Below are positions 28,623 through 62,600 of a DNA stretch of 64,000 bases, one piece after another (within the stretch, counting starts at the first letter, position 1; every line of letters begins with the position of its first letter). The stretch is from Verrucomicrobiia bacterium (lineage in GTDB: Bacteria > Verrucomicrobiota > Verrucomicrobiia > Limisphaerales > Fontisphaeraceae). A program made the position numbers and the translations under genes. The notes below the pieces were generated by a model. The model worked only from the letters and a program-made list of their open reading frames with translations. It searched no databases and had not been told where the DNA came from. Location: positions 62,001-126,000 of the forward strand of contig JAOAIT010000009.1 of assembly GCA_026414565.1 (NCBI GenBank), in the 5' to 3' direction.

Positions 28623-30206
28623 ATGAACACGCCTCGCTGGTTGACGATCGGTCTGGTTTGTTTTTGGGGGGGAGTGCATGCCGGCTTTTCTGCCGCCGCT
28701 CAAATTCCTCCAGAGTGGGAACTGGCGCAGAAATACACCAACATCCACCGGTTTTCCACCCTGTTCACCGCGCAGGATGTCCGCCGTTATCTGTCCTCGG
28801 ACGAGGGCTTGCAACAGGCGATCCAGTGGTGCAAACAGACGGCCATTACCAAGGTCTATCTGGAGTCCTATCGGGATGGCTATACGGCTGAGCGGGAGGC
28901 GTTAATCAAGGCGCGGGACGCTTTTCAGCAGGCGGGTTTCCTCGTTTCCGGCTGCGTGACCCCCACCAAGATTGGCAAACTCATTCCCGGTTGGGGCAAC
29001 AACATCTCCTGTTATACCGATCTTCCCACCCAGCAGCGGGCGCGAGAGATCTATACTTACGCGGCCGCGCTGTTTGATGAGACGATGATTGATGATTTCT
29101 GGTTCACCGAGTGCACCTGTGCGGAGTGCGACACGGCGCGGCGCGCAAAGGTGGTGACGATTGGGGACCAGAAATTTCCGGTGGCAGGGGATACCTGGGC
29201 GGATTATCGCGGCGAGCTGATGCTGCAGCTTTCCCGCCTGTATGTGTTGCAGGCAGGCCGGCAGGTCAACCCGCGCGCCACGTTCATCCTCAAGTATCCG
29301 CAGTGGTATGACTACTTTCACGTGCGCGGCTACGATGTGGTGCGGCAGACGGCCGAATTTGATCGCATCTGGGTGGGCACCGAGACGCGGGATTATCAGG
29401 ACAAACGCTGGGGCGGCACCGTGCAATACGAGGCGTATTTCATCATGCGCTGGCTGGGCGGCCTCGGTGGCGCCAAGTGCGGGGGCGGTTGGTACGACTG
29501 GCTGGGCACGACGGAAAAAACCTATCTCGAGCAGGCGCGGCTGACCATCCTGGGCGGCGCGCGGGAGAGCCTCCTGTTTTGTTACGGCGGCTTGCAGGGC
29601 GGCACCGGCCCGAAGAACATCGAAGCCCTGCGCGGACACCTGCCGCGGCTGTTCAGCACGGCGGCGGACGTGGCCAAACGCCGGCCGGTGGGCATCGCGG
29701 CCTACAAGCCGCCGGGCAGCGATCCCGGCAAGGAGCGTTATGTGTATGATTTTGTGGGGATGCTTGGCCTGCCCCTGCTGCCATGTCACGAATTTCCCAC
29801 CCAGGCGGAGGCCGCGTTCTTTTCGGTGCATTGCTTGAAGGACGAACAGTTGGTGCCCAAGTTGCGGGCGTTTCTGGCGGCGGGCAAACCGGTGTTGATC
29901 ACTGATGGCCTCAAGGCCCGCCTGGAGGGGCAGGTGGACTGGAGCAAAGGGGAGGTGCAGGTGTTGGAAGTCAAAGGAGATCCCAAGCGGTTGTTGGAAC
30001 TGAGTCGGGAAGAGCTGGACAAATTGCGGCTGCCGCTTTTGCGTCCGCTCAAGGTGCGCTTCAGCGCTCCCGGCAAGGTGTCGCTCCATTTGTATGCGGA
30101 TGGCAGTTGGGTGATTTGCAATTTCAATGATGATTTTGTGGGGGTGGAACTGAATGGCGTGCGGCATCCGGTGGGCGAGCGCGGCTGGCTGCAACTGTGG
30201 AAGTGA
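28623..30206 (+). CDS. Secreted TIM-barrel-like glycoside hydrolase candidate
   Basis: A 527-residue protein with a signal peptide (WLTIGLVCFWGGVHAGFSAAA). The mature N-terminal part has the strand/helix order of a (beta/alpha)8 barrel, with acid-rich motifs IDDFWFTECTCAECDTARR and KVYLESYRDGYTAER. A later domain (GIAAYKPPGSDPGKERYVYDFVGML) resembles the class-I glutamine-amidotransferase-like fold often attached to such barrels. The cysteine-rich CTCAEC suggests a bound metal or disulfides. No substrate can be named. Confidence 0.45.
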   Translation: MNTPRWLTIGLVCFWGGVHAGFSAAAQIPPEWELAQKYTNIHRFSTLFTAQDVRRYLSSDEGLQQAIQWCKQTAITKVYLESYRDGYTAEREALIKARDAFQQAGFLVSGCVTPTKIGKLIPGWGNNISCYTDLPTQQRAREIYTYAAALFDETMIDDFWFTECTCAECDTARRAKVVTIGDQKFPVAGDTWADYRGELMLQLSRLYVLQAGRQVNPRATFILKYPQWYDYFHVRGYDVVRQTAEFDRIWVGTETRDYQDKRWGGTVQYEAYFIMRWLGGLGGAKCGGGWYDWLGTTEKTYLEQARLTILGGARESLLFCYGGLQGGTGPKNIEALRGHLPRLFSTAADVAKRRPVGIAAYKPPGSDPGKERYVYDFVGMLGLPLLPCHEFPTQAEAAFFSVHCLKDEQLVPKLRAFLAAGKPVLITDGLKARLEGQVDWSKGEVQVLEVKGDPKRLLELSREELDKLRLPLLRPLKVRFSAPGKVSLHLYADGSWVICNFNDDFVGVELNGVRHPVGERGWLQLWK

Positions 30207-30342
30207 GCAGTGGCGGGGCAACGCCCAAACCCCAACCCTAGGAAATTTCCCGGGTCAGGGGCGACGAGGGCAACCCGCCGTGGCGATGGGGCCACGGGCG
30301 GCATTTACTTTGGATTCGACAGGGGGCCGGAAGGTGATTAGC

Positions 30343-31344
30343 ATGGCGAGGCTTATGAAACACCTTCGCGCGCTTCTGATTCTGGCTTTGGTTTGGGGGG
30401 GTGGCGCGGGAGCCGCCCGTCTGTCGGCCGCCACGCCAGGGGGTTGGGACAAGGTGGATCCCGCCCGGCCCAAACAGGTTCTTTATTTTACCAAGTCCTC
30501 CGGCTTTGAGCACAGCGTGGTGAAGCGTCCGGCCCCTGATCAGCTCAGCCATTCGGAAAAAGTCCTCACCGAGCTGGGGGAGAAGCACCGTTTCAAGGTG
30601 ACCTGCACCAAGGACGGGCGCATTTTTACGCCGGAAAACCTGGCGCGTTTTGATGTCATCGTGTTCTACACCAGCGGCGATCTGCTGGAGGCGGGCACGG
30701 ACAAGCAGCCGCCGATGACGGTGGAGGGCAAGGAGGCGTTTCTGCGTGCCATTCGTGAGGGCAAGGGCTTTGTGGGCATCCATGCCGCCACCGACAACTG
30801 GCATCCCCAGCCGGACCCGCCGGATAAATCAACACGGTTTCAATCGGTGGGGGACCGCCTGGATCCCTACCTGCGCATGATCGGGGGTGAGTTCATCCGC
30901 CACGGCCCGCAGCAGGTGGCCCGCAACCGGGTGGTCAGCCCGCGTTTCCCCGGCTGCGAAGGCCTGGGCGAGGGATTCTCGTTGAATGAGGAATGGTACA
31001 CCTTCAAGGATTTTGCGCCGGATTTACACGTCATCCTGGTGCAGGAAACGCGGGGGATGAAGGGCATTGATTATCAGCGGCCGGATTTCCCGGCCACTTG
31101 GGCGCGCAAGGAGGGCCGCGGCCGCGTGTTTTATACTTCGCTGGGGCATCGTGAAGATGTCTGGACCAATCCGCTGTTCCAAAACCTCCTGCTGGGCGGA
31201 CTGGGCTGGGCGGCGGGTTTGGTGGAGGCCGAGATCGCTCCCAACCTGGAGCAGGTCACGCCCGGCCATCGGCAGCTTCAACCCAAGGACGATCCCAACG
31301 CCAAAAAGGCCGCTGCCCCTGCGCCGGCGGCCAACCCCAAATAA
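30343..31344 (+). CDS. Secreted ThuA-domain protein
   Basis: A 333-residue protein with signal peptide (MARLMKHLRALLILALVWGG and on). The ThuA fold (PF06283) is seen in QVLYFTKSSGFEHSV, DVIVFYTSGDLLEAG, GKGFVGIHAATDNWHP and GRVFYTSLGHREDVW. ThuA proteins are linked to sugar uptake and use. It follows the TIM-barrel-like gene on the same strand and may share its substrate (inference). GGAAGG precedes ATG 30343. Confidence 0.85.
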   Translation: MARLMKHLRALLILALVWGGGAGAARLSAATPGGWDKVDPARPKQVLYFTKSSGFEHSVVKRPAPDQLSHSEKVLTELGEKHRFKVTCTKDGRIFTPENLARFDVIVFYTSGDLLEAGTDKQPPMTVEGKEAFLRAIREGKGFVGIHAATDNWHPQPDPPDKSTRFQSVGDRLDPYLRMIGGEFIRHGPQQVARNRVVSPRFPGCEGLGEGFSLNEEWYTFKDFAPDLHVILVQETRGMKGIDYQRPDFPATWARKEGRGRVFYTSLGHREDVWTNPLFQNLLLGGLGWAAGLVEAEIAPNLEQVTPGHRQLQPKDDPNAKKAAAPAPAANPK

Positions 31345-31356
31345 ACCCTCCGCTCT

Positions 31357-31896
31357 ATGCCGCGCCGCCCGCCACCCCTGACGGACACGTTGTGCCTGCG
31401 GTGCGGCCTGTGTTGCAATGGGGTGCTGTTTGCAGATGTGGAATTGCGCCCCGGTGACGATCCCGCGGCGCTGACCGAGGCCGGCGTGCCATTGACCTGC
31501 AAACACGGCAAAATCAAATTTCCGCAACCGTGTCCGTGCCTGGAGCAGGGGCGTTGCCGCATTTATGAGCAGCGTCCCATGCGGTGCCGCGCCTTCGACT
31601 GCCGTTTGCTGCAGCGGGCGCAGGAGGGGAAAATCGCGCTGAACGAGGCGCGCTACCTCATCCGCATCACGCGGGAGCAGGCCGAGCGCGTGCGCCGGCT
31701 GGTGCGCGTGCTGGGCCAGCGCGACGAACAAATGCCTCTGAGCCGCCGTTACCAGGCCGTGATGCGCGAGCCGCTGGACCTGTCCCAGGGCGAACGCCAT
31801 CAACGCCGCCGCGGCGATTTGCTGCTGGCGGTGTATGAGCTTACCCGCCTGCTCGAGCAACATTTCCTCGGCACCCCGCCGGTGTCGGACAGATAA
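31357..31896 (+). CDS. YkgJ family cysteine-cluster protein
   Basis: A 179-residue protein with the N-terminal pattern LCLRCGLCCNGVLF, then TCKHGK, PCPCLEQGRCRIYEQRPMRCRAFDC, a family of putative zinc or iron-sulfur binding proteins with no fixed function. The basic tail is predicted to be helical. It follows the ThuA gene by 12 bases, so it probably shares the transcript. The 224 bases after it hold no supported gene; a minus-strand frame (about 31950-32090) has no homology I recognise. Confidence 0.75.
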   Translation: MPRRPPPLTDTLCLRCGLCCNGVLFADVELRPGDDPAALTEAGVPLTCKHGKIKFPQPCPCLEQGRCRIYEQRPMRCRAFDCRLLQRAQEGKIALNEARYLIRITREQAERVRRLVRVLGQRDEQMPLSRRYQAVMREPLDLSQGERHQRRRGDLLLAVYELTRLLEQHFLGTPPVSDR

Positions 31897-32120
31897 ACCA
31901 CGAGAGCTTGGGGAATCCCTGAAGGACCTGAAGCAGCACGATGACCCACGGACAAGAAGCCGAAACTTTTGGTTACCCAGTATGTGCCGAATCCTTCCTG
32001 CTGGAGGTTGTTGGGCACAGACTGAAACAGCTTGTGGGCTTGCACAGAAAGTGACGGGTTGAGGTAGAGCTGGCGACGATAACTGTTCACAAGAACAAAC
32101 GGCCATTAAGTTGTAAAGTC

Positions 32121-34124
32121 ATGCCGAACAACAGCCCAGCACATAACCTTTCCAGGGCATGGTACGGTGCATCCATCGCGGAATTCATGGCCGCTGGGAA
32201 TGACGTGGTTCTTGGTCAACTGACGCAGAACTGTGATTGCGATATTCCCCAGCCCCAGAAGAATGCCTGGCTTTGCCAAATTGATATACTTCGCAGCCAA
32301 ATCGAAGGACTGCGAGGGGCGGTCTTTTTCGAATTTAACATTCCGCGCATGGGGCGTCGTGCGGATGTTATCTTGCTTGTTGGCCCCGTGGTCTTTGTAC
32401 TGGAGTTCAAAGTAGGAGCGCAGAAGGCGGATTCTTCGGCAGTCAGTCAAGTATGGGACTATGCTCTCGACCTTAAAAATTTTCACAAGGCAAGCCATCC
32501 CCTTTGCATCGTTCCGGTTTTGATTATTACCGAGGCCAAACACACTCCCTCTCTTCGCTGGCTTGAGGATGCGGATGGAGTGGTCCGTCCGCTTATCACC
32601 AATGGCTTCCGACTGCGGGAAGTCATCAACTTCGCTCTGGAAAACAGGCATGGTACTGAAATTGACGGCCACGCATGGATGAACGCGCCCTACCGGCCCA
32701 CGCCTACGATTATTGAAGCGGCCCGCTGCTTGTATGCCCAACACTCTGTGGGAGCTATTGCCCACTTCGACGCGGAGGCACAAAACCTGGGCGTGACTTC
32801 CAAAAGGATTGAGGAGCTGGTGGATGAAGCGCAGAAGTACCGTAGAAAATATATTTGTTTTGTTACTGGTGTGCCCGGGGCAGGAAAGACATTGGTTGGG
32901 CTTAATGTGGCAACCCATAGACGTGATGGCGGAAATGCTGCCCATGCAGTGTACCTTTCAGGCAATGGACCGCTGGTGGCAGTTCTGCGGGAGGCCCTTA
33001 CGCGGGATGAACTTGAGCGCGTGAGATTGAGAGGTGAGAACGTTCGCAAGGGCAGGATTGGCGAAAGTGTCAAAGCTTTCATTCAAAACGTGCATCACTT
33101 CCGCGACGAAGGACTGGCGGATGATCGCCCGCCGCCCGAGCATGTGGTAATATTTGACGAGGCTCAAAGAGCGTGGAATTGGAAGCATACAGCCAATTTC
33201 ATGCGGAGGAAAAAGCGGATCAATTCCTTCCGGCAGTCTGAGCCGGAATTTCTCATTTCCTACATGGATCGTCACCAGGATTGGGCGTTCGTTGTCTGCT
33301 TGGTGGGTGGGGGGCAAGAGATTCATACGGGCGAGGCTGGCATTGCGGCATGGCTGGATGCTGTGCAGCAACATTTCCCTCACTGGCACATGTTCATTTC
33401 TTCGCGCCTGACAGATTCCGAATATGCCGCAGGCAGGGCCCTGGAGAAGGTGCGCACTCATAGGCATTATTATCTGGATGACAAATTGCACCTGGCTGTC
33501 TCCATGCGGTCTTTCCGAACCGAGCGCGTCTCCCATTTTGTCAAAGCTCTGCTTGATGGTGAAAGAGACCAAGCTAGAAAATTATATGAGGAATTTGCCA
33601 ATCGCTATCCAGTGGTCTTATCCCGGGATTTGGAAGCAGCGAAGGCGTGGATTCGCTCCCGGGCCCGCGGTTCAGAACGCTATGGCTTGATGGCCTCTTC
33701 CAAGGCCATGCGTTTGAAACCTTATGCCATAGACATTCGGGTGTCGGTTGATCCCGTGCATTATTTTCTGAACGGGCCGGAAGACATTCGCTCCAGTCTG
33801 TACCTTGAAGACGCCGCTACCGAGTTTCAGGTACAGGGACTGGAGCTGGACTGGGTTTGTGTCAACTGGGACGCCGATTTTCGCTTTGAGGAGGGCGCGT
33901 GGAAACATCACGACTTTCGGGGCAGCCGATGGACCCGGATTGTTAATCCGGATCATCAAGCTTACTTGAAGAATGCCTATCGCGTGCTTTTAACCCGCGC
34001 GCGTCAAGGAATGGTCATTTTCATCCCTCCTGGCAATGGGGCGGATGCAACACGTGTGCCCGCTTATTATGACGGTACATACAATTACTTGCGTGAGCTG
34101 GGCATTCCAGTGATTCCGGCATGA
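32121..34124 (+). CDS. PD-(D/E)XK nuclease fused to a DUF2075 helicase, putative defence protein
   Basis: A 667-residue protein. Residues 70-125 look like a PD-(D/E)XK nuclease core: Asp82 in RRADVILLVG, then Glu95-x-Lys97 in LEFKVG, then a Q-x3-Y helix. From residue 245 comes a superfamily 1 helicase of the DUF2075 / Schlafen-3-like type: Walker A GVPGAGKT (Lys256), Walker B FDEAQ (Asp346-Glu347), QGLELDWV, and motif VI YRVLLTRAR. Its base composition is visibly less GC-rich than its neighbours, and about 220-245 non-coding bases lie on each side, which suggests transfer. Similar proteins occur in defence islands. The nuclease call is by motif and is less certain than the helicase. Confidence 0.75.
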   Translation: MPNNSPAHNLSRAWYGASIAEFMAAGNDVVLGQLTQNCDCDIPQPQKNAWLCQIDILRSQIEGLRGAVFFEFNIPRMGRRADVILLVGPVVFVLEFKVGAQKADSSAVSQVWDYALDLKNFHKASHPLCIVPVLIITEAKHTPSLRWLEDADGVVRPLITNGFRLREVINFALENRHGTEIDGHAWMNAPYRPTPTIIEAARCLYAQHSVGAIAHFDAEAQNLGVTSKRIEELVDEAQKYRRKYICFVTGVPGAGKTLVGLNVATHRRDGGNAAHAVYLSGNGPLVAVLREALTRDELERVRLRGENVRKGRIGESVKAFIQNVHHFRDEGLADDRPPPEHVVIFDEAQRAWNWKHTANFMRRKKRINSFRQSEPEFLISYMDRHQDWAFVVCLVGGGQEIHTGEAGIAAWLDAVQQHFPHWHMFISSRLTDSEYAAGRALEKVRTHRHYYLDDKLHLAVSMRSFRTERVSHFVKALLDGERDQARKLYEEFANRYPVVLSRDLEAAKAWIRSRARGSERYGLMASSKAMRLKPYAIDIRVSVDPVHYFLNGPEDIRSSLYLEDAATEFQVQGLELDWVCVNWDADFRFEEGAWKHHDFRGSRWTRIVNPDHQAYLKNAYRVLLTRARQGMVIFIPPGNGADATRVPAYYDGTYNYLRELGIPVIPA

Positions 34125-34368
34125 CCTTTGTCATTCGATCGTTGGCCGATGCCCCATGGCAAGGAACCCTCGGTGTGGTGCACTTGTACGGCGCAAGCAT
34201 TGATTTTCATTCCCACACCAGGTGAGTAAGACAGAAACCGACTGCTTCAGGCCTGAAGTGAAAAGGTAAGCCAGCTTCCCAAAATTAAGGCCGGGCTTTT
34301 CATCGGCCACCGGTGTCGCCGGGAGCAGGGGGATGGCAAAGGAGGCTGGGCAGGCGTTGGGGCTTGGG

Positions 34369-35994
34369 CTAGGTGGGCAGGGGGGGAGGGGGGCGGCGGA
34401 TGAGGGTGTCGCGTTTTTCCCAGGCGGGATCGGGATGGGGGTGGTCGAGCGTGTAATGGAGGCCGCGGCTTTCGGGGCGTTGGAGGGCGCAGGCCACGAT
34501 CAGCTCGGCCACGGTGGCGATGTTGCGCAATTCGAGCAGGTCGGCCGTGACGAGGAAATCCCAATAAAACTCCTGAATTTCGGCCTGAAGATTGAGGATG
34601 CGGTTGCGGGCGCGCTGGAGGCGTTTGGTGGTGCGGACAATGCCCACATAGTCCCACATCACGCGGCGGATTTCGTCCCAGTTGTGCGACACCACCACCA
34701 TTTCATCGGCGTTGGTAGCATGGCCGCTCTGCCATTGGGGCAGGTGCTCGGGCGGGGGGGGGAGGGGGGAGCGCAGAGCCAGTTGGGCGGCGCGATGCGC
34801 GCAGACCACGGCTTCGAGCAGGGAGTTGCTGGCCAGGCGATTGGCACCATGGAGGCCGGTGCAGGCCACTTCGCCAATGGCCAGCAGGCCGGGCAGCTCG
34901 GTCTCGCCGTCCACCGTGGCCAGCACGCCGCCGCACTGGTAATGGGCGGCGGGGACGACGGGGATGGGCTCCTTGGTCATGTCAATCCCGTACTTGAGCA
35001 GGGTTTCGTAGATGTTGGGAAAGCGATTCATGACGAACCGGGCCGAGAGATGCGAAATGTCCAGGAGCACGTAATCCGCGCCGGTGCGTTTCATCTCGCT
35101 GTCAATGGCGCGGGCCACAATGTCGCGCGGGGCCAGGGACTTGAGCGGATGCACGTTGTTCATGAATTCCTCGCCGGCCAAGTTTTTCAGCACGCCGCCT
35201 TCGCCGCGCACGGCCTCGCTGATGAGGAACGATTTGGCTTTGGGATGGTAGAGGCAGGTGGGGTGAAATTGGATGAATTCCATGTTGGCGATGGGCACGC
35301 CGGCCCGATAGGCCATGGCCACGCCATCGCCGGTGGCGATGTCGGGGTTGGTGGTGTAAAGATAAACCTTGCCGCAGCCGCCGGTGGCGAGGACGACCAC
35401 GCGCGCGGCAAAGGTGTCCACCTGCCCGGTGGTTTTGTTGAGCACGTAGGTGCCCACGCAGCGGTTGGGGCCGGGCAGCCCCATCTTGGCGGTGGTGATC
35501 AGGTCCACGCCAAAATGGTTCTCGAAAATGTGGATGTTGGGCTGGCCGGTGCAGGCCTCCAGCAGGGCGCGTTCAAGCTCGCGGCCGGTGATGTCCTGGG
35601 CGTGGAGGATGCGGCGCTTGGAATGGCCGCCTTCGCGGGTGAGGTCGAGGGCGGCATGACCGGGCGCGGCGGGATCAGGCCGGACACTGAAACGCGCCCC
35701 ATATTCGATCAGCTCCGCAATCCGGGCGGGGCCGTCCTGCACAATGGTGCGGACCACTTCTTCCTTGCACAGCCCGGCGCCGGCCACGAGGGTGTCGCGC
35801 ACGTGTTCTTCAAAGCTGTCCTCCTTGCTCATCACCGAGGCGATGCCGCCCTGGGCATAGTTGGTATTGGACTCCGCGCGATTTTTCTTGGTGACCACGG
35901 CGACGGTGCCGCCGGCGGCGGCTTTGAGGGCAAAGAACAGTCCGGCGATGCCGCTGCCAATGACGAGAAAATCGTAATGCTTCACGTTGCCCAT
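34369..35994 (-). CDS. nadB: L-aspartate oxidase
   Basis: A 541-residue flavoenzyme that makes iminoaspartate for NAD synthesis. The FAD dinucleotide fold YDFLVIGSGIAGLFFAL opens the protein; NTNYAQGGIAS, GGGxGKVY-like GGCGKVYLYTTNP, EFIQFHPT and HYQCGG/GEVACTGLHGANRLASNSLLEA follow. Length is normal. The ATG at 35994 is preferred over a GTG at 36006. No nadA or nadC is adjacent. The 244 bases between the helicase gene and nadB hold no gene. Confidence 0.95.
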   Translation of the reverse strand: MGNVKHYDFLVIGSGIAGLFFALKAAAGGTVAVVTKKNRAESNTNYAQGGIASVMSKEDSFEEHVRDTLVAGAGLCKEEVVRTIVQDGPARIAELIEYGARFSVRPDPAAPGHAALDLTREGGHSKRRILHAQDITGRELERALLEACTGQPNIHIFENHFGVDLITTAKMGLPGPNRCVGTYVLNKTTGQVDTFAARVVVLATGGCGKVYLYTTNPDIATGDGVAMAYRAGVPIANMEFIQFHPTCLYHPKAKSFLISEAVRGEGGVLKNLAGEEFMNNVHPLKSLAPRDIVARAIDSEMKRTGADYVLLDISHLSARFVMNRFPNIYETLLKYGIDMTKEPIPVVPAAHYQCGGVLATVDGETELPGLLAIGEVACTGLHGANRLASNSLLEAVVCAHRAAQLALRSPLPPPPEHLPQWQSGHATNADEMVVVSHNWDEIRRVMWDYVGIVRTTKRLQRARNRILNLQAEIQEFYWDFLVTADLLELRNIATVAELIVACALQRPESRGLHYTLDHPHPDPAWEKRDTLIRRPPPPLPT

Positions 35995-36182
35995 ACCGGG
36001 TTTCACTCATACTCCGTTGGCGGGAGCATCCCAAGCACTTTCTTATAAGCACGGGAACGCTGGGGCATTGTGGCGGCGGGTTGCCCTGGGTGGCGTTTCT
36101 TGGGCAGCAGAGGCATCTTTCGGGGCTGGTCGCTGAGTTTTTCCTGCTGCCAGGGCGGGCAGGTTTGGCTTAAATTGGGGCC

Positions 36183-37733
36183 ATGAGCGGTGCCTCCAAC
36201 CCCCAGGTGCCGGCGCAGGCCGCCCTGCCGTGGCCGACGCTGCTGGTGCTGGGCGGCGTGTGGTTTTGGGTGTGTCTGATGCTGGCGCCGGAATGGGAGA
36301 TCAATCCGCAGTACAGCTACGGGTGGGGCGTGCCCTTGCTGGCGTTGTATTTGTTTGCGCGGCGCTGGCCGCCCGGCCCGCCTGAGCCGCCTGCCACGCC
36401 CCATTGGCGATGGCTGATGGCGGGCCTGCTGGTTGTCTGCCTGCCCTTGCAGGTGGTGTACGAGGCCAACCCAGATTGGCGGCTCCTCACCTGGGCGGCG
36501 GCGGTGCTGGGCGTGGTGACCAGCCTGCTCATGCTGTGGGGCGTCGGAGGCCCGGGATGGGCGTGGCGGCTGGCTTTTCCGATCTTTTTCATGTTAACCT
36601 CAGTACCGTGGCCGACTGGATTGGAGACGCGCGTAGTCAATGGCCTGCTCAGTTTCATTACAGGCGTGACCACCGAGGCTTTGAACTGGCTGGGGGTGGC
36701 GGCCTTTCGTCAGGGCAACATCATTAAACTGGCCAGTGGTTTGAGTGTGGGCGTCAACGAAGCCTGCAGCGGTGTGCGCTCGCTGCAAACGGCGGTAATG
36801 GTGACGCTGTTCATGGGCGAGTGGTTTCGGCTGCGCTGGGGGGGGCGCGGGGCGCTGTTGGTGGCGGGCATAGCGTGGGCGATATTTTTGAACATGCTGC
36901 GCACGGGCTGGCTGGCGTGGTTGACGGCCCGCCACGGGGCCGAGGCCCAGCGGAGCTGGCATGACCCGGCGGGCCTGCTGTTGTTTGGTTTGTTGGTGGG
37001 CGGCGTGGCCCTGATGGGCTGGCTGGCCCAGCGCGGCAGCCGGCCTGACGAGCCTAAAACTTCCGTGACAGATGCCGCCGACGCCGCCTGGCTGCCCCGG
37101 GGCTGGGCTTTCGCGTTGTGTGGCTGGCTGGGACTTTGCCTGGGGGTGACGGAGGCGTGGTATCGCTGGCATGAGCAGGAGCGCGGGCCCCGGCTGGCGT
37201 GGCGCGTGCGTTGGCCCACGGACGCGCCAGGCTTCCAACTGCGGGCGGTGGACGAAGAAATCCGGGTCTTGCTGCGCAGTACGCAGAGCGAATCGGCCTT
37301 GTGGGAGCGGGGCGGGGGGGTGCACTGGATTTTGTTTTTCAACCGCTGGGCGCCCAGCCGGGTGTCGTCGCTCATGGCGCGGGTGCATCGGCCGGAGATC
37401 TGCCTGCCTGCCACCGGATTTGAACTGGTGGAGCGGCAGCCAGCGGCGCTCTTCCCCGCGGGCAACCTTGAGCTGCCCTTTCGCACGTATGTTTTTACGG
37501 GGCAGGGGCGCACGTGGTATGTTTTCTTTTGTGTGATGGAAGAGCGCCCCCTGCCCGGCGGCGGCTGGCCGGAGGCCGAGCCAACCCGTTGGCAGCGTTT
37601 GCGGCAGGCGTGGCTGGGGCGGCGCAATTTGGGCCAGCAAGCCCTGGAGGCCGTGCTGACGGGGTATCCCAGTCTGGCCGAGGCCCAGCGGGCATGGTTG
37701 ACGGAATTGCCGCGGTTGATTGTAACGGAATAG
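36183..37733 (+). CDS. xrt: Exosortase with a C-terminal EpsI-type domain
   Basis: A 516-residue membrane protein. About eight transmembrane helices form an exosortase (EpsH family) with the catalytic Cys195 in EACSGVRSL, Arg240 in NMLRTG and His260 in SWHDPAG. A single C-terminal periplasmic part (residues 340-500) with RVHRPEICLPATGFEL matches EpsI (DUF3485). It should cleave PEP-CTERM sorting tails in the inner membrane; a substrate is at 56205-59348. The next gene starts four bases after its stop. Confidence 0.88.
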   Translation: MSGASNPQVPAQAALPWPTLLVLGGVWFWVCLMLAPEWEINPQYSYGWGVPLLALYLFARRWPPGPPEPPATPHWRWLMAGLLVVCLPLQVVYEANPDWRLLTWAAAVLGVVTSLLMLWGVGGPGWAWRLAFPIFFMLTSVPWPTGLETRVVNGLLSFITGVTTEALNWLGVAAFRQGNIIKLASGLSVGVNEACSGVRSLQTAVMVTLFMGEWFRLRWGGRGALLVAGIAWAIFLNMLRTGWLAWLTARHGAEAQRSWHDPAGLLLFGLLVGGVALMGWLAQRGSRPDEPKTSVTDAADAAWLPRGWAFALCGWLGLCLGVTEAWYRWHEQERGPRLAWRVRWPTDAPGFQLRAVDEEIRVLLRSTQSESALWERGGGVHWILFFNRWAPSRVSSLMARVHRPEICLPATGFELVERQPAALFPAGNLELPFRTYVFTGQGRTWYVFFCVMEERPLPGGGWPEAEPTRWQRLRQAWLGRRNLGQQALEAVLTGYPSLAEAQRAWLTELPRLIVTE

Positions 37734-37737
37734 AGGC

Positions 37738-39435
37738 ATGAGCATTTTTTTACCGGATCCAGAGGCTCCGCCCCGGTGGTGGCGGCGGGTGCTGTGGGTG
37801 GTGGTGCTCCTGGCGCTGGTGGCGGGGCTGCTGCTGGCGCCCTCCGCCTATGAGCGCTTGAAAGTCCGCCGCGCCCAAGCCATGGCTGAGCTGGCCCGCA
37901 GCCATCTCACGCGCAAGGACTTTAACGCAGCGGTGGAAACCGCCCAGTCGGCCCTGCATTTGAACCCCGCCAACCGCGAGGCCCTGCGGGTGCTGGCACT
38001 GGTGTTCACCGAATTCAAGCGCGAGGAGGCCTTTAGTTTGTGGGAAACTTTGTGGCGCGGCCAGCCCCCGCCGCAGGAGGAGCGGGACATGCTGGTGGAT
38101 CTGGCCCTCTTTTTGCGCCGGTGGGATAAAGCCGAACAGTATCTAATTCAAGCCCTGCGCGAGACTCCTGAGCGGCCGGCCACCCTGCGGCAGGCGGCGC
38201 ATTTTTTTGAGCAACGCGGACAAACCGCGCAATCCATTGCGGCCTGCCGTGCCTATCTGGCGCTGCAACCGGCCGATGAAGAAATCCAGTTGCTGCTGGC
38301 CCGCCAGCTTTTGACCCTCACCAACTCGGCGGAGCAGGCACAGGCCAGGGCCATACTTCGACAGCTCACCACCTCCACCAACCAGGGCACGGTCCTGGTG
38401 GCGGTGGGCTTCTGGTCCGGCGCACGGGACATGACGCCGGAAGAGGCGCAATATTGTCGGGAACGCCTCCAAACCCTGCCGGCCGGGGTGACCCGTGACT
38501 TTTTATTGCAAGACCTCGCCCTGCGCAGTGCGCCGCAGCGCCGGGAGGAGATTATTGCCGAGACAATCAAACAGTTTCAAAAGGGGGGGGAGGATCGCCT
38601 GCTGGGGTTGGCCCGCTGGCTCAATGGCCGGGGCGAATACCTGCGGGTGCTGGAGGTGCTGCCCGAATCGGTGGCCTTCAAGAATCAGGACTTCTTCCTG
38701 GTTTTTTGCGATGCCATTGCAGGTCTAAGTGACTGGCCGCGGTTGCAGGCCCTTCTGGCCAATGACCAGGTGCCGCTGCCCGGCTGGCTGCGGGAGCTGT
38801 ACCGTGCGCGGGTGGCCATGGAATTGGGACGGGAAAACCAGGCCGTGGCCCACTGGGATCAGGCGCAGAGCCAGGCCGCCAATCTGCCGGAGGCCCTACT
38901 CTACCTGGGCGAATACGCCGAGAAAATCGGCGCTGTGGCCGAGGCTGCCCGCGCCTATCGGCGGCTGGCCACGTTTCCCACTTATACGCGGCGGGCCTAT
39001 CTGGCGCTCATTCAACTTTATGAAAATCGCGGTGACACCGCCGAATTGCGGCGGTTGATGCAGGACATGGTGAAACTCTATCCGGACGATGAGGCGCCCC
39101 GCAACGATCTGGCCTACTTGGAGCTGCTGCTGGAAATTAACATTGAGGGGGCGCGGCAGGTGGCCGAGTCGCTGGTGGCCAAACGACCGGACATGATGGC
39201 CTACCGCACCACGCTGGCCTTGGCGCACCTGCGGCGCAAAGACTATGCGGGTTTACGGGCTGCCTACCAGAAAAGCACCCTGGTTTGGGATCAAGCCCTG
39301 CCCGGCTGGCAGGCGGTTTACGTGGCCGCCCTCGGGGCGCTGGGCGAAACCAATCTGGCCCGCCAACTGGCGCCCACCGTGCCCTTGGCCCGGCTTAAAC
39401 CCGAAGAGCGCGAGCTGTTGCGCCCCTGGTTGTAG
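37738..39435 (+). CDS. TPR-repeat protein downstream of the exosortase
   Basis: A 565-residue protein with one N-terminal membrane helix (VLWVVVLLALVAGLLLAP) and many tetratricopeptide-like helical pairs, e.g. ARSHLTRKDFNAAVETAQSALHLNPANREAL. Most of the chain should lie in the periplasm. Its gene is four bases after the exosortase stop, so the two are probably made together. Such TPR partners are common next to exosortases and may organise substrates or polysaccharide export (inference). AGAGG precedes the ATG. Confidence 0.75.
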   Translation: MSIFLPDPEAPPRWWRRVLWVVVLLALVAGLLLAPSAYERLKVRRAQAMAELARSHLTRKDFNAAVETAQSALHLNPANREALRVLALVFTEFKREEAFSLWETLWRGQPPPQEERDMLVDLALFLRRWDKAEQYLIQALRETPERPATLRQAAHFFEQRGQTAQSIAACRAYLALQPADEEIQLLLARQLLTLTNSAEQAQARAILRQLTTSTNQGTVLVAVGFWSGARDMTPEEAQYCRERLQTLPAGVTRDFLLQDLALRSAPQRREEIIAETIKQFQKGGEDRLLGLARWLNGRGEYLRVLEVLPESVAFKNQDFFLVFCDAIAGLSDWPRLQALLANDQVPLPGWLRELYRARVAMELGRENQAVAHWDQAQSQAANLPEALLYLGEYAEKIGAVAEAARAYRRLATFPTYTRRAYLALIQLYENRGDTAELRRLMQDMVKLYPDDEAPRNDLAYLELLLEINIEGARQVAESLVAKRPDMMAYRTTLALAHLRRKDYAGLRAAYQKSTLVWDQALPGWQAVYVAALGALGETNLARQLAPTVPLARLKPEERELLRPWL

Positions 39436-55994: not shown

Positions 55995-56204
55995 GGGGAT
56001 ACGATAACCTTGAGGTTGGGGAGTAATCAAGGTGATGAGCAGGGGGAATGAGGCCGGTTTGGCCCGGCTGGGATTCCATGGCCGGAAAGTAATACAAAAG
56101 CAGGGAGCCGCGGCTTAAAGAAAGTCGTTGTCAAACCTTTGGTTATGTGCCATTTTATCAAAGCTGAGAATGGCACTGCCTTTGCTGTTCTCTGTCGGTG
56201 ATTG

Positions 56205-59200
56205 ATGTGTAGTTATCGCAAGTTATTGTCCAACAAGCTATTTGGGTGGATGGTGGTGGCATGGATGGCCATGCCGGGATTGCTTTTTGGGCAAACAACT
56301 TATACATGGACGGGCAGCACCTCAACAAATTGGGGGATTACAAATAATTGGAGCCCTGCAAGTGTCCCGAATGCTGCTACGCATTTCGTGGTTTTTAACG
56401 CCGCTGGCACCACCCGCTGGGTGGTTGATTTGGGCAATAATGATCGTAGCGTGTTAGGATTGAGCTTTCTCAATGCAGCGGGAAGTGAGTCGTTTAATAT
56501 CAACAGCGCCAGCGGCAACCGTTTGAACATCTATTCTGCTGGCATAACCAACCTGGACACGGATATTCAGTTCATCAATGCCCAAGTTCGCCTGGCGGCC
56601 AATCAAACGTGGTATTCCGAAACGGGAGGGGGGTTGACTCTTAGCAATGTATTGGACTTGCAGAACTTTAGACTCACACTTACCGGCGGAGGGACCTTGA
56701 GCTTTAATGGGATCGTACAGGACAACGGAGGGATTACCAACAATGCTAGTGGTCTGACCATTTTTAATGCAGCGAATTCGTTTAGCGGGGGATTGACCAT
56801 CAACAGTGGCACGGTGCGGTTTGGGAACAATGCGGGAGCAGGCTCCGGCACATTAAGGCTGAACGGGGGCTCCATTCAAGCAGGAGGCGGGGCAAGGACT
56901 TTGGCAAACGAGGTTTCGGTGGGGGGTAATTTTGGCGTGGGCGGTACGAATGATTTAACCCTTTCCGGCTCAATGTCCCTGGTTTCCACCGCTCGAGTGG
57001 TGACGGTGACCAATGCAGGTTTAACCACCTTCTCCGGTTTGGTCTCGGGAAACGGCCTGGTGAAGTCCGGGTCGGGCACGTTGTTATTGAGCAACAACGG
57101 CAACACGTTCGATGGTCTGCGCGTCCAAGCGGGGACGCTCAGCTTGCGGCCGGGGGGTAATCTCAGTTTGCCGAACAGTGGCAGCAGCGTGGCCGGAAGC
57201 GGGGACGTGATTATTGACGGGGGCACGCTGTTATTGAATCCCGTTGGGGATGTCATCACCATGAATCGCGAGATTACTTGGACGACCAACGGGGGTATCT
57301 TGGACATTGCACGGCCGGCGCGAGGGGTGAATGCGTGGGGAGGTTTTAATGTGAACGCCGCCTCCAACACTCCGGCCATTATTCGTTACAATACTCTGGC
57401 CAACACCGTCGGCAACCAGGCGTGGGATGCAGGGCAGGATTTTCTCATTCCCAATGGCAGTCTTTATGGGACGGGCACTGTGGTGTTCGCCCTGGATAAT
57501 GGAGCGACTTTTCAACTGCGCGACACGAATTTCCTGGGTACGCTCATCATTCGCGGCCCGGCCAATGGCAATTCCAGCGGCAACAGTCTTGCCACCAATC
57601 TGGCCCGGCTTTCCTTGAGCGGCGCCGTCTCACCTTCAGATTTTACCAATTTCTTCTTTTATGGTGGATTGATTTTGGAGGGGGCGGTGCAAGTCACCGA
57701 GTATTACGATCAACGGCGCATCTCCTCTGATATTTTGATTCGGACCAATGCGCGCGTCAATTTCCAGGGCCGGAGCACCACAAGTGCTGTGCAGGAGGAC
57801 TACCTGATTCTGGGGGGAAGCGTGCTTAATGCCAACACCTTGACGATCCAGAGCAACGCCGTTGCCACCATTGACATTCGTTTTCGCAGTGACGAGTCGA
57901 TCAACACGTCGGGCGTGATTCTGGATGCCCGCACGGTGATTGAAGCCGGGGGCACGCTCATGTTCGCTCATTCACGTCAAAACGATGGTTTGTCGGGTAT
58001 GACCGGCGAGCATCTGGTGCGCGGAAATATTGAGGGACGCGGACGCGGCACGGGGGCGTGTTGCGGCACGGAGGGAGAGTCCATTGTGGATTTGCGGATT
58101 GGCCTTGGCAGTCCCAGCCCGAATCTATTGATTGGCGGCTTCACCAACGGCGTGATTTTTGCGCCTTCGGTGGCGCTGGTGGTCAACAGCCCTGATCCCA
58201 ATTGCTGCAACGGCCTGCGCATCCAGGGGCCGGGGGCTTTCGTGACCAACCTGGTGACCCCCGCCCGCCTGCAAAACTTGCAGGGTACCAACGGGACGCT
58301 CACGATTGCCTTCAGTGACAGCGCGGCGCAGACCTTTGCGCCGGGGCCGTCCGCCCCCAGCCCCATCAAGTTGGGCTTTGATCGGACGACCAACACCGTG
58401 AACCCGGTCTATACCATTGGCCAGACGGCCAATGACATGGCCAACTTCAGCGGCCTGGTGATCAAGGGCGGCACGGTGCAACTGGGCGCTGATCAGTCTT
58501 TCGTGGGCACCGCCGCCATTCGCACGACTCTGGATGTCTGTGGAGGCACGCTGGTGTTGGGCAGCGGCACGACCCCGCGCACCTTGACGATTGAAGGCAA
58601 CGCCTTGTTGCAGGGAGGCACCCTGAACGGCGGCAGCGGCACGACCAAAGGCACGCTGGTGGTGGGCGGGGATTTGATTTCCAACGGCAGCACGCTGGTC
58701 AATACCCCCAACATCACCATGAACCCCGCGGTCAGCGAGACCACGTATGTTTCGGGCACGACTCCCTTGAGCGGCATGGGGGCTTTTGTGAAGAACGGGC
58801 CGGGGACAACCGTGCTGGTGAATGAAATCAATCCTACGCGGGTGGTCATCAACAACGGCACGTTGCTCCTGGGCGCGAATGAGCGGATTGGGAATTCGGT
58901 CCCGATGACCCTCGCGGGCGGCACCTTTGCCACCGGGGGGTACAACGAGACGCTGGGCAAGCTGACGCTGGATGCCAACTCGACGATTGATTTGGGGGCA
59001 GGCAACAGCATTTTGACCTTCGCCAACAGCACCTCCGAGGCGTGGAACGCTTCAGCCATTTTGAGCATTGTCAACTGGACCGGCAACCTCGCTGGTGGCG
59101 GCATCGATCGAGTTATTTTTGGCCCTGGTGGTTTGACTGCTGGGCAGCTCTCTCAGGTGCGGTTTGTCAATCCCTTTGGTCTGACGCCTGGCATCTACAA

Positions 59201-59348
59201 CGCCATCATGCTGAGCAGTGGCGAAATTGTGCCGGTGCCAGAGCCGGCCACCGTGGTGGCCGTGGTGTTGCTGGCCGGTTTGATCGGCTGGCGGGAGCGT
59301 GCCCGGTGGCTGGTATGGTGGCGCCGGGCGCTGGCCGGCTTGCGGTGA
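56205..59348 (+). CDS. PEP-CTERM autotransporter-repeat protein
   Basis: A 1047-residue exported protein. Signal peptide ends at LLFGQ. The body is built from autotransporter-associated beta-strand repeats, e.g. GGLTINSGTVRFGNN, GLVKSGSGTLLLSNNGN, making a long beta helix. The C-terminus is a PEP-CTERM sorting signal: VPVPEPATVVAVVLLAGLIG followed by a basic tail (WRERARWLVWWRR). It is the likely substrate of the exosortase at 36183. ATG 56205 used; a TTG one codon upstream is possible. Confidence 0.85.
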   Translation: MCSYRKLLSNKLFGWMVVAWMAMPGLLFGQTTYTWTGSTSTNWGITNNWSPASVPNAATHFVVFNAAGTTRWVVDLGNNDRSVLGLSFLNAAGSESFNINSASGNRLNIYSAGITNLDTDIQFINAQVRLAANQTWYSETGGGLTLSNVLDLQNFRLTLTGGGTLSFNGIVQDNGGITNNASGLTIFNAANSFSGGLTINSGTVRFGNNAGAGSGTLRLNGGSIQAGGGARTLANEVSVGGNFGVGGTNDLTLSGSMSLVSTARVVTVTNAGLTTFSGLVSGNGLVKSGSGTLLLSNNGNTFDGLRVQAGTLSLRPGGNLSLPNSGSSVAGSGDVIIDGGTLLLNPVGDVITMNREITWTTNGGILDIARPARGVNAWGGFNVNAASNTPAIIRYNTLANTVGNQAWDAGQDFLIPNGSLYGTGTVVFALDNGATFQLRDTNFLGTLIIRGPANGNSSGNSLATNLARLSLSGAVSPSDFTNFFFYGGLILEGAVQVTEYYDQRRISSDILIRTNARVNFQGRSTTSAVQEDYLILGGSVLNANTLTIQSNAVATIDIRFRSDESINTSGVILDARTVIEAGGTLMFAHSRQNDGLSGMTGEHLVRGNIEGRGRGTGACCGTEGESIVDLRIGLGSPSPNLLIGGFTNGVIFAPSVALVVNSPDPNCCNGLRIQGPGAFVTNLVTPARLQNLQGTNGTLTIAFSDSAAQTFAPGPSAPSPIKLGFDRTTNTVNPVYTIGQTANDMANFSGLVIKGGTVQLGADQSFVGTAAIRTTLDVCGGTLVLGSGTTPRTLTIEGNALLQGGTLNGGSGTTKGTLVVGGDLISNGSTLVNTPNITMNPAVSETTYVSGTTPLSGMGAFVKNGPGTTVLVNEINPTRVVINNGTLLLGANERIGNSVPMTLAGGTFATGGYNETLGKLTLDANSTIDLGAGNSILTFANSTSEAWNASAILSIVNWTGNLAGGGIDRVIFGPGGLTAGQLSQVRFVNPFGLTPGIYNAIMLSSGEIVPVPEPATVVAVVLLAGLIGWRERARWLVWWRRALAGLR

Positions 59349-59477
59349 TGCTATTCGACGGGGGCTGTTTCACGCCCGTGAGCCGTTGCAGATGCGCCAG
59401 GGTGCGCAAACCGAATTCTTTTAATCTCCCCTTTAGCGAGTCAATTTCCTGTGGAGCCAGGCCTGATTGTCATAAGT

Positions 59478-59505
59478 TTGACTTCTGTTAGTTGCTTATT
59501 ATTAA
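59478..59505 (+). promoter_or_regulatory. Promoter candidate of the giant exported protein gene
   Basis: TTGACT, 16 bases, TATTAA, in an A/T-rich gap of about 350 bases that otherwise shows no gene. Leader length to ATG 59700 is near 190 bases. Confidence 0.4.
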
Positions 59506-59699
59506 CGGTTTTTAACCAAAAATTTTCCATTTTTCGGTTGCGCGCAGGTTGATTTTCGTTCAATGTAACAGGGAACCCAATACATAGGACATCTGCCATG
59601 GGTGAACAGGCCGTGCAAGTTATCTCTGTGAGTTGGAGAGAAGGGCCGGAAAATGCACTCTTGGTGGAGTCAAACCGTGCAGAAAGGAAAAGTACGTTT

Positions 59700-62600
59700 A
59701 TGCAAAAACAAATGCAATTCTTCAAGGATGCAGAAAGTTTTGAGCGGCAATCAATCACATTCTTGTGGCACGGTATAAAAACATGGACTGGAGGGCTGGC
59801 CTTGGTTTTGGCTGCCTCGATGGCTCACGGCCAATGGGTGGCCATCAATGACGTGTTCAATGGGCCTCTGACCCACCCCAACGTGACCACGTATGGCACG
59901 GTGGCCTCAGGGGTTTCCATCACCGGGAGCGGTTTTTTGAAAAACTTGAACACCGGAGAAAACCTGACCGCACGGTTGGAAATTTACAATGAGAACGTGG
60001 TGCCGGCGGGCACCATGGGCACCCCCAACCAAGACACGCCAGCCATGAACATGTTTGGGCCGTATGTGGATTGGAGCACGGCTTCCGGCGGGCAGAACGC
60101 GGTTTATTTGGACTCGACCTCGGATGTCATTTACTATCGTTTCACCGGCCTGAATCCGAATGCCCGCTATTCTTTTCACGGCACGGCGGTGCGCAACAAT
60201 TCAAGCTACACCACCCGGTGGACGCGGGTGACCTTGCAAGGGGCGGAGTCGTTTGACGTGGCGCATCTGACTGGTCCGTCCAGCCCGGGCATTTTAACCG
60301 CTCAGTATCCGGGTTCCGGGCTGGGCCCCAATGAGGCGGCGTTCAACGCGGGTTATAACACGGTGGCGGGTGATGTGGTGGGGTGGACGAACATCGATCC
60401 GGGCGCCGATGGGGAAATCATCATCGTTTGCCGGGTCTATACAGGCGCCATTCCCAGCGGTACCGCTGCCACGATTTCGTATGGTTTCAACGCTTTGCGG
60501 CTGGAAGAGCTGATGACCGGGCCGATCGAGATCGTGCGTCAGCCGGAAACCAACCTGGTGGTGGAGGCCTTCAGTCCTTGGACGCTGGCGGTGGAGACCA
60601 CTGGCGGCGGGCCGCAGTATCAGTGGTATCGTGGCGTGCCCGGCAGTGCGGTGGCCATCGAGGGCGCCACGCGGCGGACCTATGGCAGCGCCAGCGCCAG
60701 CTTGAGCGATAGTGGCAATTATTTTGTGGTGATCCGCAATCAGTTTAATGCCATGACCAGCACCGTCTCGACCGTCACGGTGTTTGTGAATCCCATTCAA
60801 ATCACCCAGCAACCCACCAATCGGCTGTCGGTGCTGGAATTGCGGCCCGTTAATCTCAGTGTGGAAGTCACCGGCACGCGTCCGCAATTTCAATGGTACA
60901 AAAATGGGCAGGCCATTCCGGATGCCACCAATCGCCTATTCACCATTCCGGTGGCCACGGCGGCTGACAGTGGCAACTATCACGTGGTGGTGACCAACAT
61001 ACTTTACGGCGCGACGAGCACGGTGGCGCAAGTGATTGTTTCCTCGGACGCCACACCACCGCAGGTGGTGCGGATCGTGCCCAACACGTTTCATGATAAA
61101 ATCATCGTCGAGTTTGACGAGGCCGTGGACCCCGCCATTGCCGGCAATCCAGCCAATTACAGCGTAGATCCTTATGTGGATATTTACTCCGCCGTCATGA
61201 CCAACCAGCGCACGGCGGTCTTGCTCACCGCGCCCTTGCCCCCCAACTCGACTTTGAACTTGCAGGTTTTTGTGCAAGATTTGGTGGGCAATGTGCTGCT
61301 GGACACCTTCCCCTTCCAGACCTGGGCCCCGAATCTGGCGGGTGGGGTAATGTTTGATGTCTATTATACCGGCGGCGGGACGGCGATTACCAACCTCCTG
61401 CTGAATCCCCGTTTCCCCCATGCGCCCGACAGCAGCTACGTGTTGACGAATTTTGACACCACCATCTTCTGGCCGGATGCCAGCAACGGTCAATCCCACC
61501 GGGAAAACTACGGGGCGCGGTTGCGGGGGTACTTCATCCCCGTGGTCTCGGGTAATTATCACTTCTTCATCCGGAGCGATGATGCCTCCGAGTTGTACGT
61601 GAATCCCAACGGGCCCTCGGAAAGCGGCAAGGTGCGAGTGGCTTACGAAACGGGCTGTTGCAACGCCTTCCAGGAGCCCGGCACGGCAATCCAGACTTCC
61701 ACCAACACCTTCCCGCTGATTGCCGGCCGCCCGTATTACGTGGAGGCCGTGTACAAGGAGGGTACGGGCGGCGACTGGTGTCAGGTGGCGGCGCGACGAG
61801 TGGGTGATCCCACGCCAGCTAGTCAATTGGTGCCCATTCTGGAAACCGGTGTGCCTTATCTCCCGCCCGGGCTCTATGGGCAAAACAGCTTCCTGGCCGA
61901 GCCGCAGGACATCACCATTGAGTCGCCGGCCACGTTCACATTGTCAGCACTGGCGACCAACAGTTTGAATGCGCCCTTCTCCTATCGGTGGCAACGCAAT
62001 GACGGGGCCGGCTTTGTGGACATCCCCGATGCTCGGGGGCGCAGCATTTCCTTCACCAACGTGACGGTGGCCCAGAGTGGCGCGCAATTCCGGGTGATTG
62101 TGGCGGCGGGCGACACCGCGATTACCAGCCGTGTGGCGACGGTCACCATTACCCCGGACGCCACTGGCCCGCTAGCCCTCAATGCGCGGCGGGAGGCGAA
62201 CCTGACGACCATTGTCATCAACTTCTCCGAGCCGCTGGACCCGGTGAACGCCACGGCCGTGAACAACTACCAGGTGTGCGATGTCTTCCTGCCCAGCCGG
62301 TGCGTGAACATCATCGGGGCCACGTTGACGAACAACAACACCACGGTGATTCTGGACACCGAAATGCCCGATTTGGCCGGGACGTATCAGTTGCGCATGA
62401 GCGGCATCACGGACGTTCACGGCAACCTTATCCGGCCGCCGACCACGTTGTCTCTGCGCATCGTGACTTCCTACCAGCAAGGTCTTTATGGCTATAGCGG
62501 CACGCAGGACACGCAACTGCGTCAGGCCAATCCGGATGACAACTACAACACCGCCACCTCCTTGCTGGTGGATGCTTCAGATGGCGGTGGGGTGGTGCAG

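What the first reader, a model, noticed from the sequence alone, without database searches (positions are those of the whole stretch)
32121..34124. Lone nuclease-helicase fusion of foreign composition, candidate single-gene defence system
An SF1 helicase of the DUF2075/Schlafen-like type (Lys256, Asp346-Glu347, YRVLLTRAR) is joined to an N-terminal stretch with a PD-(D/E)XK layout (Asp82, Glu95-x-Lys97, Q-x3-Y). The gene is less GC-rich than its surroundings and stands alone between housekeeping genes. The known family role in defence islands plus the visible composition shift make it the best accessory candidate here.
Basis: partly seen in the sequence, partly recalled or inferred. Interest (0 to 1): 0.6.

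Follow-up and report, generated by a model that had tools for sequence, protein, structure and literature searches.

The report
Lone nuclease-helicase, likely anti-phage gene
This bacterial gene makes one protein that joins a DNA-cutting domain to a DNA-unwinding motor; it belongs to a widespread but untested family already listed as a possible single-gene defence against viruses.

Summary
Residues 10-178 are predicted with high confidence to fold as a PD-(D/E)XK nuclease (nearest Can2, Cdn1, NucS, McrC); residues 243-636 are a Schlafen-group-3 SF1 helicase. Both catalytic sets are invariant in all 76 aligned sequences. The protein matches PADLOC candidate PDC-S41 end to end (E=1e-275), so the proposed single-gene system is already a listed, unverified candidate. 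Copies are patchy (44 of 383 genomes of the phylum, own included). In another genus three genomes show an empty site where a fourth has just this gene. Some copies lie near McrC, a restriction-modification pair or an endolysin, but a neighbour survey showed no clear excess of defence genes. Two arguments weaken: low GC is a family trait (60 of 67 loci), not proof of recent arrival, and the one other genome of the genus has the gene at the same place, frameshifted. Best reading: a self-contained nuclease-helicase that degrades invading DNA. Side lead: the human Schlafen 'linker' may be a decayed form of this nuclease domain.

The parts
32121..34124 (+). Nuclease-helicase gene, PADLOC candidate PDC-S41, 667 aa
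   Evidence: 914 bits, residues 11-665 on 2-653 of 657
32148..32654 (+). N-terminal PD-(D/E)XK nuclease domain (residues 10-178)
   Evidence: model of residues 1-216, mean pLDDT 90.4; matches to Can2, Cdn1, NucS/EndoMS, McrC
32331..32462 (+). Nuclease motif block E71, D82, E95-x-K97, Q110-x3-Y114
   Evidence: invariant in 76 of 76 aligned sequences; all six kept in 20 of 22 separately fetched loci, two of which look like rows already in that alignment
32847..34028 (+). SF1 helicase domain, Pfam PF09848 Schlafen group 3 (residues 243-636)
   Evidence: E=3.5e-78; UvrD-type matches in the full model
32865..32891 (+). Walker A, TGVPGAGKT (249-257, K256)
33156..33170 (+). Walker B / motif II, DEAQR (346-350)
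33978..34007 (+). Helicase motif VI, YRVLLTRARQ (620-629)
31897..32120 (.). 224 nt upstream gap, GC 0.513, with no match in the sister species or the other loci held
34125..34368 (.). 244 nt downstream gap, GC 0.574, with no match in the sister species or the other loci held

Best explanation
The gene encodes a self-contained anti-phage (or anti-foreign-DNA) enzyme of the PDC-S41 family. An ATP-driven SF1 motor of the Schlafen-group-3 / UvrD-Pif1 kind is thought to load on single-stranded or end-containing DNA of an invader, such as replication or recombination intermediates. It would feed that DNA to the N-terminal PD-(D/E)XK domain, whose D82/E95/K97 site (with E71, Q110, Y114) cuts it. Shown here: domain make-up, family membership, intact catalytic sets, patchy accessory distribution, an insert made of this gene alone in one other genus, some phage and plasmid carriage. 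Inferred: that the target is foreign DNA, that motor and nuclease act on the same molecule, and that the cell survives rather than dies.
For: PADLOC PDC-S41 over the whole protein, E=1e-275. Nuclease fold at mean pLDDT 90.4, nearest to Can2 (Z 8.9, 139 aligned, 4.1 A), Cdn1 (Z 8.2, 140, 4.5 A) and McrC (Z 7.7, 123, 3.5 A) (by the tool's note a Z under 8 may be only a common arrangement). Both catalytic sets invariant in 76 of 76. Patchy: a clear copy in 9 of 57 related genomes and a copy in 44 of 383 of the phylum, own genome included; the tree mixes phyla. Empty site in 3 genomes of another genus: 2,048-2,054 bp holding only the gene, against 17-22 bp in the empty genomes. Copies next to McrC and an AAA ATPase on a mobilizable plasmid, downstream of a methyltransferase-restriction endonuclease pair on a viral contig that also has an integrase, and one small ORF away from an endolysin on a prophage-like contig. 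Repeated decay: frameshifts in the sister species, an early in-frame stop in G049, a split copy in G009.
Against: No experiment on this family was found in the paper searches made (listings and passages only). PADLOC lists it as a candidate only. Of up to 67 copies surveyed, the neighbours' listed Pfam families are mostly ordinary (only the first 25 of 140 and of 147 families are shown). PADLOC families hit at 1e-5 were 67 (96 proteins) and 121 (90 proteins) against 78 in 93 control proteins, so no clear island excess; ten neighbours of seven near relatives gave no defence match beyond one at 6e-5. Some of the nearest nuclease folds are repair enzymes (NucS/EndoMS Z 7.8 and 7.6).
Confidence: 0.6

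Rival explanations
1. An accessory DNA-repair or recombination enzyme (an AddAB/Dna2-like nuclease-helicase) kept for stalled forks or DNA ends, not defence.
For: The architecture also suits repair; the helicase best fits UvrD (Z 12.3, 282 aligned, 5.2 A); some nuclease matches are repair enzymes (2vld, NucS by recall, Z 7.8; EndoMS Z 7.6; Hjc Z 6.5).
Against: Present in a minority of genomes, present or absent between species of one genus with a clean empty site, several copies decayed, found on a few plasmids and viral contigs.
Confidence: 0.2
2. An abortive-infection effector that works like vertebrate Schlafens: the helicase half senses ssDNA or a blocked fork and the nuclease half cuts host nucleic acid (DNA or RNA) so that the infected cell stops growing.
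For: The helicase half is the family that Pfam names Schlafen group 3; the best whole-model Foldseek match is human SLFN11 (E 1e-5, but TM-score only 0.18); Can2 and Cdn1 are nucleases solved with activating cyclic oligoadenylates (titles only).
Against: Pfam gave no Schlafen core (RNase) domain for this protein; no sensor domain beyond the motor is seen.
Confidence: 0.15
3. A selfish or nearly neutral mobile gene with no benefit to the host.
For: Inserted alone; broken in the one other genome of the genus.
Against: No recombinase or transposase domain in this protein and only short repeats, probably chance, at its ends; 156 columns invariant in 75 relatives, none lost in the window copy.
Confidence: 0.05

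Closest known systems
PDC-S41 (PADLOC-DB 2.0.0, candidate defence gene)
   Same: Whole-length match, E=1e-275, residues 11-665 on positions 2-653 of 657; 6 of 6 relatives at 28-48% identity, from two plasmids, three viral contigs and genus g59, match the same model.
   Different: Nothing found; no test of the family's function was found in the paper searches made.
Nhi (nuclease-helicase immunity, Staphylococcus epidermidis) and AbiO
   Same: Nhi also joins nuclease and helicase in one system triggered by phage ssDNA-binding protein (passages of PMC10732053).
   Different: Only 27-28 residues around Walker A match, E 0.0027 (AbiO) and 0.0041 (Nhi); not the same family by these models.
Vertebrate group III Schlafens (SLFN5, SLFN11, SLFN14)
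   Same: Pfam names the helicase family after Schlafen group 3. Whole-model alignment is colinear, residues 18-637 on SLFN11 404-899 (Z 9.6, 355 aligned, rmsd 20 A, I think because the domains are turned). The nuclease domain alone matches the SLFN14 linker region 394-555 (Z 6.9, 134 aligned, 3.9 A).
   Different: No N-terminal Schlafen RNase core; the bacterial N-domain keeps a full nuclease site. A profile of the N-domain matches no PDB chain up to E 10; the whole-protein profile reaches SLFN5 and SLFN11 only at Walker A with E 0.33 and 0.79, below chance-like matches to potassium channels at 0.011.
Can2 / Cdn1 / Card1 (CRISPR ancillary PD-(D/E)XK nucleases)
   Same: Among the closest solved nuclease folds (Z 6.0-8.9).
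   Different: Those also hold a cyclic-oligoadenylate sensing part (recalled) and no helicase; 6-12% identity.

Membership tests
PDC-S41 | Whole-length match to the PADLOC model | tested here: met
   914 bits, 652 of 657 positions
PDC-S41 | Occurs as a single gene without an obligate partner | tested here: met
   no neighbour family recurs at a fixed place: the commonest cluster within five genes is in 7 of 68 loci, spread over several offsets (the helicase was missed by my gene caller in 12 of 80 loci); single-gene insert in g59
PDC-S41 | Protects against phage | not testable with these tools
   candidate status only; no paper with the name found
Schlafen group 3 helicase (PF09848) | Profile match over cut-off with Walker A/B and motif VI | tested here: met
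   263.8 bits against cut-off 24; motifs invariant
Schlafen protein proper | N-terminal Schlafen core (RNase) domain | tested here: not met
   no such Pfam match up to E 1; the N-terminus folds as PD-(D/E)XK instead
PD-(D/E)XK nuclease superfamily | Alpha-beta core with D...(D/E)-x-K at the right strands | tested here: met
   helix 44-61, strands 66-74, 79-87 (D82), 90-97 (E95, K97), helix 105-121 (Q110, Y114), strand 129-136; fold matches. Foldseek alone gave nothing at E 0.001 or better. Predicted structure only
Nhi / AbiO | Match to the PADLOC models over most of their length | tested here: not met
   27-28 residues only, E 0.0027 and 0.0041

The most novel reading that the evidence does not exclude
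The PDC-S41 nuclease-helicase represents the older architecture from which the linker plus helicase part of vertebrate group III Schlafens descends: the Schlafen 'linker domain of unknown function' would be a decayed PD-(D/E)XK nuclease, and the Schlafen RNase core a later addition in front. Human Schlafen fork and ssDNA recognition would then be inherited from a bacterial anti-phage enzyme.
Probability: 0.25. Interest if true: 0.65.

Novelty: new member of a known kind. Interest (0 to 1): 0.35.

Why it matters
It turns an unannotated lone gene into a well-bounded test case: one gene, two catalytic sites, found (by submitters' titles) across Verrucomicrobiota, Pseudomonadota, Acidobacteriota, Planctomycetota and others, with natural empty sites in a genus (g59) that has single-contig genomes. 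If it protects, it adds a one-protein nuclease-helicase defence with obvious point mutants to test. If the Schlafen linker match is real, it gives an origin for a domain described as of unknown function.

Tried and rejected
Independent arrival in the two sister species. At first the two copies looked too far apart to be vertical: fourfold-site difference 0.70 against a median of 0.403 and a maximum of 0.497 in 75 other orthologs (76 of the 102 genes with a hit passed the coverage and identity filter, of 290 genes tried), and the gaps on both sides do not align. I dropped this because a like excess, about 1.4- to 3.4-fold over the neighbours that I took as real genes, appears in 4 of 5 pairs with L178 at a fixed site in genus g59 (not in the nearest pair, L186; antisense ORFs with near-zero values in that output were set aside), and because the two copies are each other's closest relatives in the tree (SH-aLRT 99). 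One ancestral gain with fast drift is enough. Replacement by a related allele is not excluded.

Low GC as a mark of recent arrival: rejected (lower than its flanks in 60 of 67 loci with at least 3 kb of flank, of 75 loci looked at; median -0.073).

Assembly error as the cause of the broken sister copy: unlikely, since 2 of 75 control orthologs fell into more than one frame, against six pieces over three frames here.

Empty site between ykgJ and nadB: could not be tested. One other genome of the genus was returned and it is occupied; in G002, G052, G043 and G020, whose loci I took for this, the best matches to the two neighbours lie on different contigs. The empty-site test was therefore made in another genus. 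Of 5 gene-lacking genomes tried there, 3 gave a clean site and 2 (G062, G126) were too diverged to judge.

Island enrichment: PADLOC and Pfam scans of 186 neighbour proteins gave some defence matches and 8 matches to the Pfam PIN domain, but a control of 93 proteins (of 110 drawn, the last 17 not given) hit a similar number of PADLOC families. The control is partly one genome, and the tool counts families, not proteins, so this is inconclusive. My gene caller missed the helicase in 12 of 80 loci.

A first gene caller misplaced nadB and was replaced. Short inverted repeats at the two ends of the ORF (12 nt, 92%) were taken as chance. In the structure searches, families not listed are not excluded.

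Papers. Passages read: PMC10732053, PMC11514479, PMC12839542, PMC12215978, PMC9482658, PMC12499436, PMC8789055. No paper was read whole; others were seen only in listings; two searches found none. No passage that I saw calls the Schlafen linker a PD-(D/E)XK fold; PMC12215978 does compare the catalytic centre of the Schlafen core, not the linker, with restriction endonucleases (passage). From recall, Pfam has a 'GTPase-like' name for the Schlafen linker, which would speak against my reading.

Full report
What is there. The window holds one 667-aa ORF at 32121-34124 (+), between a YkgJ-type zinc/iron-chelating protein and NadB. The gene is GC-poor: 0.531 against a median of 0.617 for 278 ORFs on its 395 kb contig, with 1 of 238 ORFs of at least 200 aa lower. 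No tRNA lies in the window and no Rfam family reaches its gathering score at 30000-37000.

Anatomy. Pfam finds one family over its cut-off, the Schlafen group 3 helicase PF09848 (old name DUF2075, recalled) at residues 243-636, E=3.5e-78. No family or chain matched residues 1-229 by sequence in the Pfam, NCBIfam and PDB searches. An AlphaFold2 model of residues 1-216 on 75 aligned sequences has mean pLDDT 90.4 and the order helix, strand, strand, strand, helix, strand that marks the PD-(D/E)XK core. D82 lies on the second strand, E95 and K97 on the third, Q110 and Y114 on the next helix. Its best solved matches by VIA-align are Can2 (Z 8.9, 139 aligned, 4.1 A), Cdn1 (Z 8.2, 140, 4.5 A), a Pyrococcus repair endonuclease (2vld, NucS by recall; Z 7.8, 93, 2.7 A) and McrC (Z 7.7, 123, 3.5 A); that all are PD-(D/E)XK enzymes is from knowledge. 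Foldseek alone put Cdn1 and Can2 first but with no E-value of 0.001 or better. The full model (mean pLDDT 76.9, weaker in parts of the helicase) matches SF1 helicases over about 202-667, UvrD first (Z 12.3, 282 aligned, 5.2 A).

Family. A scan of species genomes found 402 relatives among 437 candidate stretches; the best 80 were returned. In an alignment of the window copy and 75 of these, E71, D82, E95, K97, Q110, Y114, the GAGKT of Walker A, DEAQR and YRVLLTRARQ are invariant. In 22 separately fetched loci, at 28-65% identity, the six nuclease positions are all kept in 20; L171 has no match over the N-terminus and L176 aligns differently at Q110/Y114. The window copy departs from none of 156 columns that are invariant in the other 75, so it looks functional. 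The nuclease-helicase fusion is therefore the family's fixed architecture, not a local accident.

Already catalogued. PADLOC's candidate PDC-S41 covers the protein end to end, 914 bits, E=1e-275. Six of six copies at 28-48% identity, from plasmids, viral contigs and genus g59, match the same model. 'Phage defence candidate' is the meaning given to PDC in PMC11514479 (passages); that S stands for single gene is recalled. A full-text search for PDC-S41 found no paper, and a search for DUF2075 with defence found none.

Accessory behaviour. A clear copy occurs in 9 of 57 related genomes, and two more have weak matches. In the phylum sample 44 of 383 genomes have a copy at E 1e-50, own genome included. 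In one genus (g59) at least 8 genomes have it and at least 5 do not. There, three gene-lacking genomes show both flanks with 17, 22 and 22 bp between them, where an occupied genome (L178) has 2,048-2,054 bp containing only this gene, with about 33 bp before it and 53 bp after it. Two other gene-lacking genomes were too diverged at the flanks to judge. The unit that comes and goes there is the single gene. The tree needs 25 changes of phylum label where 10 is the least possible, consistent with transfer between phyla, though MAG binning errors also add changes.

Defence context. On the Exiguobacterium plasmid pCXA (mobilizable) a copy lies next to McrC and an AAA ATPase, with an HNH endonuclease-domain protein about 4 kb away. 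On viral contig L170 a copy follows a DNA methyltransferase and a type II restriction endonuclease, with an integrase about 5 kb upstream; on L174 one small ORF separates it from an endolysin, with virion genes beyond. Yet the listed Pfam families of neighbours are mostly ordinary, and the PADLOC family counts (67 for 96 proteins, 121 for 90) do not clearly exceed the control (78 for 93). Ten neighbours of seven near relatives gave one weak PADLOC match. The window copy's three neighbours scanned by Pfam (YkgJ, NadB, exosortase) are not defence genes.

The locus in the sister species. The one other genome of the genus has thuA-ykgJ-helicase-nadB in the same order. There the helicase is split into six pieces over three frames, whereas 2 of 75 other orthologs show more than one frame. 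That copy has GC 0.503 in a region of 0.634. It is the closest relative of the window copy (SH-aLRT 99), 71.5% identical, while thuA, ykgJ and nadB are 88-95% and the exosortase 79% identical. Its synonymous sites differ more than those of any of 75 other orthologs, and its protein more than 72 of 75. A similar excess at synonymous sites occurs in genus g59 in 4 of 5 pairs, so I read this as fast vertical drift, not two arrivals. Loss in the sister species fits a costly or occasionally useful gene.

Composition. In 60 of 67 relatives with enough flank the gene is poorer in GC than its own surroundings, median -0.073. In g59 it stays about 0.17-0.19 lower than its flanks at one fixed place in six genomes. 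Low GC is thus a family trait and cannot date the arrival in this genome.

How it most likely works. Inference from the parts: the SF1 motor, loaded on ssDNA or a DNA end of the invader, translocates and feeds DNA to the PD-(D/E)XK site. The helicase-nucleases Nhi and Hna are reported to be triggered by phage ssDNA-binding protein (PMC10732053, passages), which suggests replication intermediates as the signal here too. Rivals are repair, a Schlafen-like abortive mode and a selfish gene.

A wider lead. The whole model's best Foldseek match is human SLFN11 (E 1e-5, though with TM-score 0.18). VIA-align aligns 18-637 with SLFN11 404-899 in order, with rmsd 20 A, which I take to mean that the domains are turned. 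The nuclease domain alone matches SLFN14 394-555 (Z 6.9, 134 aligned, 3.9 A, 15% identity), which falls inside the SLFN14 linker domain 366-571 (PMC12499436, passage). SLFN5's authors call this domain one of unknown function with mixed alpha/beta topology (PMC8789055, passages). A Z under 8 can be a common arrangement, and no sequence profile supports the link: the N-domain profile matched no PDB chain, and the whole profile reached SLFN5/11 only at E 0.33-0.79, below unrelated potassium channels. So this stays a hypothesis.

Verdict. A sound observation and a sensible reading, but a new member of a family already listed as a candidate. What this work adds is the nuclease fold with an invariant active site, the single-gene empty site, the demonstration that low GC is a family trait, the broken sister copy, and the Schlafen linker lead.

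Noticed in passing
window 30309-36044: In the sister species the thuA-ykgJ-helicase-nadB block is inverted relative to both flanking blocks, with breakpoints at about 30208/30309 and 36044/36138.
   Followed up: no
window 36183-39435: Exosortase (EpsH-type) gene with a weak, below-cut-off DUF3485 match at its C-terminal end, followed by an ORF (37738-39435) that I did not scan.
   Followed up: no
window 56001-57000 and 59001-60000: Two further GC dips (0.51 and 0.53) like the one at the helicase; genes there were not examined.
   Followed up: no
window 32115-32126 and 34117-34128: A 12-nt inverted repeat (92%) overlaps the start and the stop codon of the ORF; probably chance.
   Followed up: partly
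L178 7010-8971 and the matching place in L179-L182 and L186: In genus g59 the helicase gene keeps GC 0.37-0.42 inside 0.55-0.60 flanks at one fixed place in six genomes, without drifting towards the host composition.
   Followed up: partly
L170 41-7956: Viral contig with an integrase and, about 3 kb further on and on the same strand, a DNA methyltransferase, a type II restriction endonuclease and a PDC-S41 gene.
   Followed up: partly
L138 and L015 (G039): One related genome holds two separate copies of the family on different contigs.
   Followed up: no
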